Positions 12,111-61,135 of a stretch of DNA of 64,000 bases are shown here, one piece after another; the first letter of the stretch is position 1; every line of letters begins with the position of its first letter. Under the pieces are notes generated by a model. It saw only the letters and a list, made by a program, of their open reading frames with translations. It was not told the DNA's origin and did no database searches. The stretch covers positions 333,021 to 397,020 of the forward strand of contig JAVKGW010000001.1 in assembly GCA_031460175.1 (NCBI GenBank), read 5' to 3'. Source of the DNA: Armatimonadota bacterium (GTDB taxonomy: Bacteria; Sysuimicrobiota; Sysuimicrobiia; Sysuimicrobiales; Sysuimicrobiaceae). A program made the translations under genes and the position numbers.

Positions 12111-12139
12111 TTGACGGCCGGGGCGGTTGGTCCTATCGT
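12111..12139 (+). promoter_or_regulatory. Sigma-70 promoter of the serine operon
   Basis: TTGACG (12111-12116) and TATCGT (12134-12139) are separated by exactly 17 bases. Transcription would start near 12146, at the beginning of the T-box leader. Confidence 0.7.
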
Positions 12140-12145
12140 ACTTTA

Positions 12146-12391
12146 GGGAAGCGGCGAGGACGGAGCCGGCCCCGCGCCCGCCACGGTCCAGCGAGCCGGG
12201 AAGGGTGGAATCCGGCCGGCGGGTGCGGTGCTTCTCCAGCTCCGGAGCCGCGGCCGAGACCGCCTTGTGGTCGAAGGCCGCCGGGAGCGCCCGATACCGC
12301 GGATCAAGGGCCGGCGCAGGCGCGCCGGAAGCAGAGTGGCACCGCGGGATGCTCCTCCCGTCTCTGGCAGGCGCGGAGGATTTTTCATTTT
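12146..12391 (+). promoter_or_regulatory. T-box leader, probably serine-specific
   Basis: The leader contains the T-box core UGGCACCGCGG (12337-12347), a GAGCCGGG ... GGUGGAA Stem I-like region around 12191-12210, and a terminator-like fold (CCGCG 12342-12346 with CGCGG 12372-12376) ending in a U-rich tract at 12380-12391. Uncharged tRNA should stabilise the antiterminator and switch on the operon. The UGGC end pairs with a tRNA ending GCCA, i.e. discriminator G. The best specifier is UCC at 12235-12237, with AGC next to it; both are serine codons. The downstream serA and serS genes support serine. Confidence 0.85.
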
Positions 12392-12406
12392 GGTAGGGAG
12401 GATGCC

Positions 12407-13558
12407 ATGGAGGATCTGCTGCTGATTCCGGGACCCACCCCGGTTCCGCCGTCCGTGCGGGAGGCCTCCGCCCGCCCCATGGTGAACCACCGGAGCCCGG
12501 CCTTCGCCCGCATCCTGCAGGAGGTGCTGGAGGGGATGCGGTGGGTGTACCGTACGCGTGCCCCGGTGCTCCCGTACGCCTCCTCCGGGACCGGGGTTCT
12601 GGAGGCCGCGGTGGTGAACACCCTCTCCCCCGGGGACCCCGTGCTGGCCCTGGTGTGCGGGGCCTTCGGCGAACGGTTCGCGCGGATCGCGGAGATCTAC
12701 GGAGCCCACGTCACCCGGGTCGAGGTGGAGTGGGGGAGCGCGGTTCCGCCGGAGATGGTGGCGGAGCAGCTGCGCCGCCGCCCGGATGTCCGGGCGGTGC
12801 TGGTGACCCACAACGAGACCTCCACGGGCATCGCCAACGACCTCGAGGCCATCGCGCGGGCGCGGGGTGACCACCCGGCGCTCCTGCTGGTAGACGCGGT
12901 CTCCTCCCTGGGCGCCATGCCTCTGGAGATGGACGCATGGGGTCTGGATGTGGTGGTGACCGCCTCTCAGAAGGCCCTGATGTGTCCCCCGGGGGTGGCC
13001 TTCGTGGCCGCGAATGGGCGGGCCTGGGAGGCCCACCGGACGGCCCGCATGCCCCGCTTCTACTGGGACTTCACCCTGCTCCGGGCTTCTCTCGAGCGGG
13101 AGATCCCGGAGACGCCCTTCACCCCCGCCATCTCCGTTTTCTACGCCCTTCAGGAGGGGCTGCGGTTGCTGCGGGAAGAAGGGTTGGAGGCCAGCTTCGC
13201 CCGCCACCGCCGGCTCGCCCGGGCGGTGCGGGCCGGGGTTGAGGCGCTGGGGCTTCGCCCCGTGGCGGATCCTGCCCACGCCAGCAGCGCGGTCACCGCG
13301 GTGTGGGTTCCGGAGGGCGTGAGCGCCCGGGCCCTGGTGGATGCCGTGTACGAGCGCCACCGCATCGTGCTCGCAGGAGGCCAAGGGAAACTCAGCGGCA
13401 GGATCTTCCGGATCGGGCACCTCGGCTACGTACGGCCGGAGGACGTCCTCCGTTGCATGGAAGCTCTGGAGGACGTGCTCGCCCTCCTCGGCGTGCCCCT
13501 TGAGCGGGGCTCGGGCGTGCAGGCCGCGGAGGAGGCCCTGCAGGAGGTGGCGGTCTAG
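12407..13558 (+). CDS. Class V PLP aminotransferase (serine-pyruvate/phosphoserine type)
   Basis: The 383-residue protein is of the alanine-glyoxylate/serine-pyruvate aminotransferase group: N-terminal LLIPGPTPVPPSVREA, ASSGTGVLEAAV for phosphate binding, DAVSSLG, and the PLP lysine in ASQKAL. Between a serine T-box and serA it most likely supplies the transamination step of serine synthesis, standing in for SerC. A glyoxylate or alanine aminotransferase role is possible. GGGAGGA precedes ATG 12407. serA follows two bases after the stop. Confidence 0.88.
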   Translation: MEDLLLIPGPTPVPPSVREASARPMVNHRSPAFARILQEVLEGMRWVYRTRAPVLPYASSGTGVLEAAVVNTLSPGDPVLALVCGAFGERFARIAEIYGAHVTRVEVEWGSAVPPEMVAEQLRRRPDVRAVLVTHNETSTGIANDLEAIARARGDHPALLLVDAVSSLGAMPLEMDAWGLDVVVTASQKALMCPPGVAFVAANGRAWEAHRTARMPRFYWDFTLLRASLEREIPETPFTPAISVFYALQEGLRLLREEGLEASFARHRRLARAVRAGVEALGLRPVADPAHASSAVTAVWVPEGVSARALVDAVYERHRIVLAGGQGKLSGRIFRIGHLGYVRPEDVLRCMEALEDVLALLGVPLERGSGVQAAEEALQEVAV

Positions 13559-13560
13559 CC

Positions 13561-15147
13561 GTGGAGGCGCGGCCAAAGATCCTGGTGGCGGACGGCCTCA
13601 GCGAGGCGGGGTTGCGCAGGCTGCGGGAGGCCGCGGAGGTCGAAGTGTACCGGGGCCTGGACGAGGCGGCCCTCAGGGATCGCATTCGGGGCGTGGACGC
13701 CCTCATCGTGCGCAGCGCCACCCGGGTCACCGCCTCCATCTTCCAGGCCGCGGACCGGTTGCGGGTGGTGGCGCGGGCCGGGGTCGGGACCGACAACGTG
13801 GACGTGGAGGCCGCCACCCGGGCGGGTGTTCTGGTGCTCAACACCCCGGAGGCCAGCGTGCGGGCCACCGCGGAGCATACCCTGGCCCTCCTCCTGGCCC
13901 TGTGCCGGAACATCCCCCAGGCCAACGCGGCGCTCCGGGAAGGGGAGTGGGCGCGGGAGCGGTTCGTGGGCACGGAGCTGTACGGGAAGACCCTGGGCAT
14001 CGTGGGGCTTGGCCGGATCGGGAGCGAGGTGGCCAGGCGGGCGCAGGCCTTCGGCATGCGCGTCATCGCCCACGACCCCTATCTCAGCGACGAACGGGCA
14101 GCTCAGCTGGGCGTGACCCTGGTCCCGTTCGAGGTCCTGTTGCGGGAGGCCGACCTCATCACCCTGCACGTCCCCCTCAACCCGCAGACCCGCGGGATGC
14201 TGAACGCGGAGGCCCTTCGGAAGACAAAGCGGGGGGTGCGGATCGTGAACTGCGCCCGGGGCGGGCTCGTGGACGAGGAGGCCCTGCTGGGCGCCCTCGA
14301 GGAAGGGCACGTGGCGGGAGCGGCCCTGGACGTCTTCGAGACGGAGCCGCCTCGCGATCTGCGCCTGGTGCGCCACCCCCGGGTGGTGGCAACCCCCCAC
14401 CTGGGAGCCTCCACCCGGGAAGCCCAGGAGGCCATCGGGTTGGAGGTGGCGGAGCAGGTGCTGGAGGCCCTGGCGGGTCGGCTGCCCCGGGGCGCGGTGA
14501 ACGTGGCCGCGTACCGCACGGAATCCTGGGAGCGCGTCGCCCCGCACCTGGAGTTGGCTCGCATCCTCGGAGCCCTCAGCCGTCAACTCGCCCGGGGTCG
14601 GATCCGCTCCGTGGAGGTGCGACTGGAGGGGGAGCTGAGCCGCGTGGAGGGACAGCTCCTCAGCGCCTCCTTCCTGGTGGGGCTGCTGGAAGGGGTGGTG
14701 GAGCGTACCGTGAACCTGGTGAACGCCCACGTGGTGGCCACGGAGCGGGGGCTACGGGTGGTGGAGGTGCGGCAGGAACAGGCGGAGGACTTCAGCAGCC
14801 TCATGCTGGCCACCACGCACACGGACGAGGGCACCTGGGTGCTGGGCGGGACCCTGTTCGGCCGGCGGGAGCCCCGGATCGTGCGCATCAACGAGCACAC
14901 CATCGATCTCGCGCCGGCCACCCACATGCTCTTCGTGTGGAACCTGGACCGGCCGGGCATGATCGGTAAGGTGGGCACCATCCTGGGCCGGCACGCGGTG
15001 AACATCGCGGGGATGTACCTGGGCCGGGCCGCGCCGGGCGGGGTGGCGGTGATGGTACTCACCACGGACCAGCCCACGCCCCCAGAGGCCGTAGAGGAGA
15101 TCCGGCGGGTGGATGGGATCTACGGCGTCCAGCCCGTGCAGCTGTAG
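13561..15147 (+). CDS. serA: D-3-phosphoglycerate dehydrogenase, long ACT-domain form
   Basis: SerA oxidises 3-phosphoglycerate to phosphohydroxypyruvate, the first step of serine synthesis. The 528-residue protein has the NAD fold (GIVGLGRIGSEVA, about residues 145-157), catalytic Arg in NCARGGLVDE, catalytic His in PHLGASTREAQ, then the intervening domain and a C-terminal ACT domain (VWNLDRPGMIGKVG) for allosteric serine binding. The start is GTG 13561. It sits between the aminotransferase and serS under one T-box. No serB is present nearby. Confidence 0.95.
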   Translation: MEARPKILVADGLSEAGLRRLREAAEVEVYRGLDEAALRDRIRGVDALIVRSATRVTASIFQAADRLRVVARAGVGTDNVDVEAATRAGVLVLNTPEASVRATAEHTLALLLALCRNIPQANAALREGEWARERFVGTELYGKTLGIVGLGRIGSEVARRAQAFGMRVIAHDPYLSDERAAQLGVTLVPFEVLLREADLITLHVPLNPQTRGMLNAEALRKTKRGVRIVNCARGGLVDEEALLGALEEGHVAGAALDVFETEPPRDLRLVRHPRVVATPHLGASTREAQEAIGLEVAEQVLEALAGRLPRGAVNVAAYRTESWERVAPHLELARILGALSRQLARGRIRSVEVRLEGELSRVEGQLLSASFLVGLLEGVVERTVNLVNAHVVATERGLRVVEVRQEQAEDFSSLMLATTHTDEGTWVLGGTLFGRREPRIVRINEHTIDLAPATHMLFVWNLDRPGMIGKVGTILGRHAVNIAGMYLGRAAPGGVAVMVLTTDQPTPPEAVEEIRRVDGIYGVQPVQL

Positions 15148-58686: not shown

Positions 58687-58782
58687 GGAGGGGTGCGGGA
58701 GCCTGGTTGATCCGGCGCGCCTGGAGAGCGCGTAGGCAGGCCAAAACCTGCCTCGTGGGTTCAAATCCCACCCCCTCCGCCA
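58687..58782 (+). tRNA. tRNA-Ser (anticodon GGA)
   Basis: A 96-base class II tRNA with encoded CCA. The acceptor stem is GGAGGGG/CCCCTCC with discriminator G. The D arm has a 3-bp CGG/CCG stem and the anticodon stem is CGCGC/GCGCG around CTGGAGA (anticodon GGA). A long 7-bp variable arm AGGCAGG/CCTGCCT and the T arm GTGGG-TTCAAAT-CCCAC follow. GGA reads UCC and UCU. The long variable arm excludes all but Ser, Leu, Tyr and Sec tRNAs, and the anticodon fixes Ser. Confidence 0.95.
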
Positions 58783-60854: not shown

Positions 60855-61135
60855 GCGCGGCCGTGCTAGGCGGGGAGCTGGCGGTTCCCTGTAACCCCCA
60901 ACCCGCCACAGGGGGGCGGAAATCCCGACCTGAGGCGGCGTGCCTACGGGTTCCGGCCCGCGCGGACGGTGAGGAGGGCTGGGTCCTGCGCAACGGGAGC
61001 CTGTGAACCCCGCCAGGTCCGGAAGGAAGCAACGGTAAGCAGTCCCTCCCGTGTGCCGCAGGGGCACCTGGCCGGAGCCGCGCCCTGCGGAAACCGCCGC
61101 GGGTGCGTCCGTCGAGGGCGGGTGCACGGCCGCGC
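60855..61135 (+). ncRNA. ffs: Signal recognition particle RNA, long bacterial (Bacillus-type) form
   Basis: The central domain carries CCAGGTCCGGAAGGAAGCAACGG at about 61014-61036, the conserved SRP RNA apical hairpin with its GGAA tetraloop. The 5' part (GCTAGGCGGGGAGCTGGCGG ... CCTGTAACCC) matches the Alu domain of long SRP RNAs. The first 12 bases pair perfectly with the last 12 (GCGCGGCCGTGC with GCACGGCCGCGC). At about 281 nt it is of Bacillus type, not the short E. coli form. The end overlaps the CPBP gene stop by one base. Confidence 0.93.

What the first reader, a model, noticed from the sequence alone, without database searches (positions are those of the whole stretch)
12146..12391. 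Serine T-box whose sequence matches the tRNA-Ser(GGA) gene in the same window
The leader's UGGC is complementary to the GCCA end (discriminator G) of the tRNA at 58687-58782, and the candidate specifier UCC (12235-12237) pairs with its GGA anticodon. The operon holds an aminotransferase, serA and serS, so synthesis and charging would respond together to uncharged tRNA-Ser.
Basis: partly seen in the sequence, partly recalled or inferred. Interest (0 to 1): 0.65.

Follow-up and report, generated by a model that had tools for sequence, protein, structure and literature searches.

The report
Serine T-box riboswitch before serine operon
The stretch is a genuine T-box riboswitch, an RNA switch that senses uncharged serine tRNA and controls genes that make serine and load it onto tRNA; it is a well-known kind of switch, found here in a poorly studied bacterial group with a slightly rebuilt codon-reading loop.

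Summary
Window 12146-12391 is a long-stem-I transcriptional T-box, although Rfam RF00230 sees only its 3' part (27 bits, cut-off 93). Comparison settles it. The same leader precedes the orthologous aminotransferase in 22 of 30 relative loci. In 21 aligned leaders 25 of 53 pairs change on both sides; no shuffle of 500 matches that. UCC and UGGC are present in all 21 and in two more leaders at serS. Of 44 distinct tRNA predictions in the genome, 13 end in GCCA and one has anticodon GGA: tRNA-Ser of this window. Downstream lie a class-V aminotransferase, serA and serS. In two genomes the T-box sits directly before serS instead. Serine T-boxes on serA/serC, with UCC specifiers, are in print (PMC8002221), so this is a new member of a known kind. 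Less ordinary: the window's family lacks the specifier-loop AGUA/GAA motif and has one extra base pair below the specifier, shifting UCC by one place. The tRNA gene lying in the same window means nothing by itself.

The parts
12111..12139 (+). promoter-like site TTGACG-17-TATCGT
   Evidence: consensus scan, 9 of 12, shuffle mean 0.0; same site in the sister species L007 by reading
12146..12391 (+). T-box leader as a whole (start inferred from the promoter)
   Evidence: orthologous leaders, covariation
12151..12251 (+). stem I: base 12151-12155/12247-12251, kink-turn-like GAGGAC/GGAG, helix 12162-12166/12239-12243, helix 12172-12182/12218-12228, distal helix 12195-12199/12212-12216 with AGCGA bulge and GGUG-containing loop
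   Evidence: written from the sequence and counted on 21 leaders
12235..12237 (+). specifier UCC
   Evidence: present in 21 of 21 leaders and in L244 and L245
12252..12300 (+). stem II (12252-12255/12276-12279) and stem IIA 12282-12285/12290-12293 with possible IIB pseudoknot 12287-12289/12298-12300
   Evidence: helix counts 71.6%, 97.6%, and 36.8% to 71.4% of cells paired
12311..12328 (+). stem III 12311-12317/12322-12328
   Evidence: 6 of 7 pairs with two-sided change
12333..12365 (+). antiterminator: 12333-12336/12362-12365 and 12344-12348/12357-12361 around the bulge UGGCACC 12337-12343
   Evidence: 100% of cells paired, two-sided changes in both helices; RF00230 partial match
12353..12385 (+). 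terminator hairpin 12353-12358/12375-12380 and 12359-12362/12370-12373, T run 12381-12385
12407..13558 (+). class-V aminotransferase, probable phosphoserine transaminase (inferred)
13561..15147 (+). serA, phosphoglycerate dehydrogenase
   Evidence: TIGR01327 664.5 bits
15157..16425 (+). serS, seryl-tRNA synthetase
   Evidence: TIGR00414 478.4 bits
58687..58782 (+). tRNA-Ser(GGA), predicted ligand, GCCA end encoded
   Evidence: ARAGORN

Best explanation
A serine-specific, transcription-attenuating T-box leader controls the operon aminotransferase-serA-serS. Stem I reads the GGA anticodon of tRNA-Ser through UCC 12235-12237, and its distal end probably docks on the tRNA elbow. If the tRNA is uncharged, its GCCA end pairs with UGGC 12337-12340 in the antiterminator bulge. 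This holds 12357-12365 in the antiterminator, the terminator 12353-12380 cannot form, and the operon is read. Seryl-tRNA cannot make the second contact, so the terminator wins. Shown here: the elements, their conservation and covariation, the operon and the matching tRNA. Inferred: the switching itself.
For: Core upstream of the orthologous aminotransferase in 22 of 30 loci; 25 of 53 pairs with two-sided change, 0 of 500 shuffles as high; UCC in 21 of 21 and UGGC in 21 of 21; RF00230 full-length match over cut-off in the orthologue L012; single GGA tRNA ending in GCCA; serS and serA downstream, and the T-box placed directly before serS in G014 and G038; mutually exclusive antiterminator and terminator, -9.3 and -14.7 kcal/mol as written; promoter-like site.
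Against: RF00230 in the window is only partial and far below cut-off. The specifier loop lacks AGUA and GAA. In strict column register the triplet would be CCA. The terminator's covariation is weak (122 of 500 shuffles reach the number of two-sided pairs). The unconstrained minimum-energy fold of the leader contains stem I and the terminator, not the antiterminator, as expected without tRNA but no proof. No expression data.
Confidence: 0.94

Rival explanations
1. A T-box reading CCA (proline, tRNA-Pro(UGG)): in the window's family this is the triplet one nucleotide before CUCC, the register used in the other families.
For: CCA is also present in all six leaders of the window's family; strict column alignment would choose it.
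Against: The three tRNA-Pro found have discriminator A, which does not pair with UGGC; the extra pair C-G, G-C or A-U in all six restores the one-base spacer for UCC; UCC is present in every other leader; serS and serA lie downstream.
Confidence: 0.03
2. A decayed T-box or a plain terminator leader without tRNA response.
For: Low RF00230 score; relatives L028 and L033 show leaders without stem I, or without the T-box core.
Against: All elements tested are intact in the window, and the sister species L007 keeps them; covariation is strong across 21 leaders.
Confidence: 0.02
3. A translational T-box that hides the ribosome binding site rather than stopping transcription.
For: Such T-boxes exist (PMC7583486, passages seen).
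Against: The competing hairpin ends in a T run at 12381-12385 and lies before the likely ribosome binding site near 12396-12401; long stem I.
Confidence: 0.01

Closest known systems
Serine T-box of serA, Paenibacillus polymyxa WLY78 (PMC8002221; abstract and passages seen)
   Same: Transcriptional T-box with three stems before serA, shown to respond to serine starvation
   Different: Specifier AGC and UGGU there; here UCC and UGGC, with aminotransferase and serS in the same operon
Predicted Ser(UCC) T-boxes of Clostridium acetobutylicum and C. tetani serA, and of C. thermocellum and Desulfitobacterium hafniense serC (as cited in PMC8002221)
   Same: Same specifier and same pathway
   Different: Different group of bacteria; operon and leader details not compared here
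T-boxes of serS in Firmicutes (PMC2494555; passages seen)
   Same: serS is among the tRNA ligase genes under T-box control in at least 29 of 34 Firmicutes there
   Different: Here one T-box precedes synthesis and charging genes together, or serS alone in two relatives

Membership tests
T-box leader (RF00230) | T-box sequence with UGGN in a 7-nt bulge between two antiterminator helices | tested here: met
   12333-12365; both helices 100% paired over 21 leaders
T-box leader (RF00230) | Specifier codon in the internal loop of stem I matching a tRNA of the genome | tested here: met
   UCC 12235-12237 and tRNA-Ser(GGA)
T-box leader (RF00230) | N of UGGN pairs with the discriminator base of that tRNA | tested here: met
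   UGGC and GCCA
T-box leader (RF00230) | Terminator that excludes the antiterminator | tested here: met
   shared strand 12353-12365
T-box leader (RF00230) | Amino-acid gene of the same specificity downstream | tested here: met
   serA and serS
T-box leader (RF00230) | Kink-turn, AG bulge and distal loop of stem I | tested here: inconclusive
   Sequence counterparts are present and conserved; three-dimensional folds not tested
T-box leader (RF00230) | Stem IIA/B pseudoknot | tested here: inconclusive
   IIA 97.6% of cells paired; IIB pairs 36.8% and 71.4% in this alignment
T-box leader (RF00230) | Specifier-loop AGUA/GAA motif (typical, not taken as defining: absent in 15 of 21 orthologous leaders) | tested here: not met
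T-box leader (RF00230) | Rfam gathering score (a detection threshold, not a biological feature) | tested here: not met
   27 of 93 bits in the window; the orthologue L012 passes with 101.9
T-box leader (RF00230) | Read-through induced by uncharged cognate tRNA | not testable with these tools
   needs transcription assays

The most novel reading that the evidence does not exclude
In the family of the window the specifier loop was rebuilt: the AGUA/GAA motif is missing on both sides, one base pair was added below the loop, and UCC moved one position so that a single spacer base still separates it from the helix. This would be a natural test of a fixed codon-to-helix distance in T-boxes, in an order where all 43 genomes searched carry T-box matches and which may be a little-studied phylum.
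Probability: 0.4. Interest if true: 0.4.

Novelty: new member of a known kind. Interest (0 to 1): 0.22.

Why it matters
It extends serine T-box control to an order that is probably outside the groups named in the surveys seen here (Firmicutes, Actinobacteria, Chloroflexi, Deinococcus-Thermus, a few Deltaproteobacteria), if my placement is right. It also shows that Rfam's cut-off misses GC-rich T-boxes: the genome has 5 matches, none over the cut-off. The relation between spacer and extra pair gives a concrete rule for placing specifiers in divergent T-boxes, where a plain column count would name the wrong amino acid.

Tried and rejected
RF00230 on the window alone could not place the specifier, so orthologous leaders were used. 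The named loci L036-L115 were only scanned for TGGNACCNCG; the matches printed in 9 of these 80 were not followed up and enter no count here. A proline (CCA) specifier was considered and rejected. The pattern hit in G039 contig 10 (L256) and the second hit in G032 (L257) are not T-boxes: no RF00230 match and no leader structure visible by reading. L244 also has no RF00230 match at E 0.01, although it carries the exact core and a leader by reading. The serS upstream regions of nine genomes (L246-L254) gave no RF00230 match at E 0.01. L255 (183 bases) and L258 (136 bases) were cut by contig ends; L255 showed no core, L258 was fetched but not scanned, and neither went. The organism could not be identified: the 16S search of the genome found nothing. 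I built no covariance model of my own and ran no structure prediction.

One script stopped with an error after the 21 aligned rows. The two remaining leaders were read; one search anchored L244 at a wrong copy of GGACGGAG, and one search corrected this.

Full report
Observation. The leader 12146-12391 carries AGAGUGGCACCGCG at 12333-12346, with UGGC at 12337-12340, and UCC at 12235-12237. The window has one tRNA gene, tRNA-Ser(GGA) at 58687-58782, ending in GCCA. Allowing one mismatch, the T-box core is expected 0.36 times by chance in a window of this composition, so the core alone would be thin evidence. A promoter-like site lies at 12111-12139, and a terminator-like hairpin is followed by the T run 12381-12385. 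RF00230 does not reach its gathering score in the window. With a permissive threshold it matches 12303-12365, model positions 156-216, at 27.0 bits.

Comparative proof. The aminotransferase was searched in 61 genomes: the own genome, 42 relatives of the same order, and 18 others of the same domain; 51 of 61 had a match. I examined the 30 loci returned. 22 of 30 carry an exact [ACG][GC]AGTGGCACCGCG upstream. The eight without it are L015, L016, L020, L022, L023, L032, L033 and L035. L028 has the core but no stem I, so 21 leaders were aligned. For the structure that I wrote from the window, 81.6% of cells pair, 25 of 53 pairs change on both sides (shuffle mean 17.7, none of 500 as high), and versions slid by 1 to 3 columns pair at most 48.5%. 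The structure comes from one of the sequences, which favours the unslid version on cells paired; the shuffles ignore relatedness. Stem III, the long helix of stem I and both antiterminator helices show two-sided changes. The distal helix of stem I pairs in all cells but varies only by G-U. The base of stem I pairs in 71.4% of cells and the long helix in 61.0%, partly because the alignment there is loose. The terminator pairs in 82.9% of cells with weak covariation: 4 of 10 pairs with two-sided change, reached by 122 of 500 shuffles.

Specifier. UCC stands just before the CUCC-type strand in 21 of 21 leaders and in two more, L244 and L245. RF00230 aligned to relatives puts UCC in the specifier loop, for instance in L012 (101.9 bits) and L018 (70.2 bits). 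In the six leaders of the window's family (f1) UCC lies two nucleotides before that strand instead of one. There the base after GGAG and the base before CUCC pair: C-G twice, G-C three times, A-U once. In the 15 other aligned leaders, where the spacer is one, these bases do not pair. L244, from another family, has spacer two and U-A; L245 has spacer one and C with C. So the extra pair forms in 7 of 7 leaders with spacer two and in 0 of 16 with spacer one. The codon keeps one spacer base above the helix, which favours UCC over CCA. The AGUA and GAA motifs of the specifier loop are both present in 6 of 21 leaders and both absent in 15, the window's among them.

Ligand. RF00005 found 43 places in the genome. 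ARAGORN on these regions gave 44 distinct predictions, a few of them doubtful (an odd 98-nt Phe; no Asn or Asp seen, so the list is not complete). 13 end in GCCA: Arg 5, Gln 2, Ser 4, Trp 1, SeC 1. Only the window's tRNA has anticodon GGA. Neighbouring frames fail: CUC would need tRNA-Leu(GAG) and CCA tRNA-Pro(UGG), both with discriminator A.

Genes. The class-V aminotransferase, serA and serS follow; a TPR protein comes next. In 20 fetched operon regions aminotransferase-serA-serS is complete in 15; four have aminotransferase and serS without serA between, and one was cut by the contig start. The aminotransferase is not a canonical SerC by NCBIfam. The genome has no serC_1 match over cut-off, and this gene is its only, weak match; it does have seven other class-V aminotransferase matches. 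Its best solved relatives are named serine-glyoxylate, serine and alanine-glyoxylate aminotransferases. That it makes phosphoserine is inferred from the operon. The core pattern occurs in 25 of 43 genomes of the order and in 0 of 18 outside it. The G039 hit and one of the two G032 hits are unrelated stretches by reading without RF00230 match, leaving 24 genomes, one of them (G027) without stem I. In G014 and G038 the leader sits directly before serS; the aminotransferase of G014 has no T-box (L015), and that of G038 was not examined. No core was found upstream of the aminotransferase in the five f2 loci examined (L016, L020, L022, L023, L032).

Mechanism. The shared strand 12353-12365 can join the antiterminator or the terminator. 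As written, the terminator is the more stable, -14.7 against -9.3 kcal/mol. Uncharged tRNA-Ser(GGA) would tip the balance through UCC-GGA and UGGC-GCCA. This step is established for T-boxes in general (PMC7583486, passages seen) and is inference here.

Setting. All 43 genomes of the order have RF00230 matches at E 0.01, 2 to 15 each. The own genome has five: this one and leaders before a DAHP synthase (UUC in the loop), an acetolactate synthase (CUC), metG (AUG by reading), and one followed further on by a prephenate dehydratase. No genome between order and domain level appeared among the relatives. That fits Sysuimicrobiota (CSP1-3), described with one class and one order (PMC11604079, passages seen), but it is a guess and not an identification. 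A search for papers with both T-box and Sysuimicrobiota found none.

Known and new. A serine T-box on serA is experimentally shown (PMC8002221), and UCC-reading ones on serA and serC are predicted in Clostridia and a relative according to the same paper. T-boxes outside Firmicutes are reported for Actinobacteria, Chloroflexi, Deinococcus-Thermus and a few Deltaproteobacteria (PMC3766115 and PMC2494555, passages seen). The finding is therefore a new member of a known kind. Its local curiosity is the rebuilt specifier loop.

Noticed in passing
L012, L024-L027, L029-L031, L034, L159, L162, L165 and others; column pair 307/328 of alignment A1: The wobble G-U pair at the base of antiterminator helix A2, described as a conserved part of the aminoacyl sieve (PMC7583486), is G-C in 19 of 47 distinct T-box cores from this order and in 9 of 21 serine leaders. 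The window keeps G-U.
   Followed up: partly
L028 (G027) and L033 (G039), upstream of the aminotransferase: L028 has the T-box core and terminator but no stem I; L033 has the start of the leader joined to the terminator without the core. Natural deletion or assembly fault is not decided.
   Followed up: no
L001 45-326 and 1501-1733 (own genome, contig 3): Two T-boxes about 1.4 kb apart, before a DAHP synthase (UUC) and an acetolactate synthase (CUC); the same arrangement is in the sister species (L172).
   Followed up: partly
L002 1501-1738, minus strand (own genome, contig 2): T-box with CCC in the loop by RF00230 alignment and UGGU; the frames just downstream have no Pfam match, and a prephenate dehydratase follows. 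Specificity unclear.
   Followed up: partly
L245 (G038) and L244 (G014), before serS: The two leaders placed directly before serS have a different, in L245 clearly shorter, stem I.
   Followed up: no
window 60861-61129: Bacterial large SRP RNA, 161.3 bits, the only Rfam family over its gathering score in the window.
   Followed up: no
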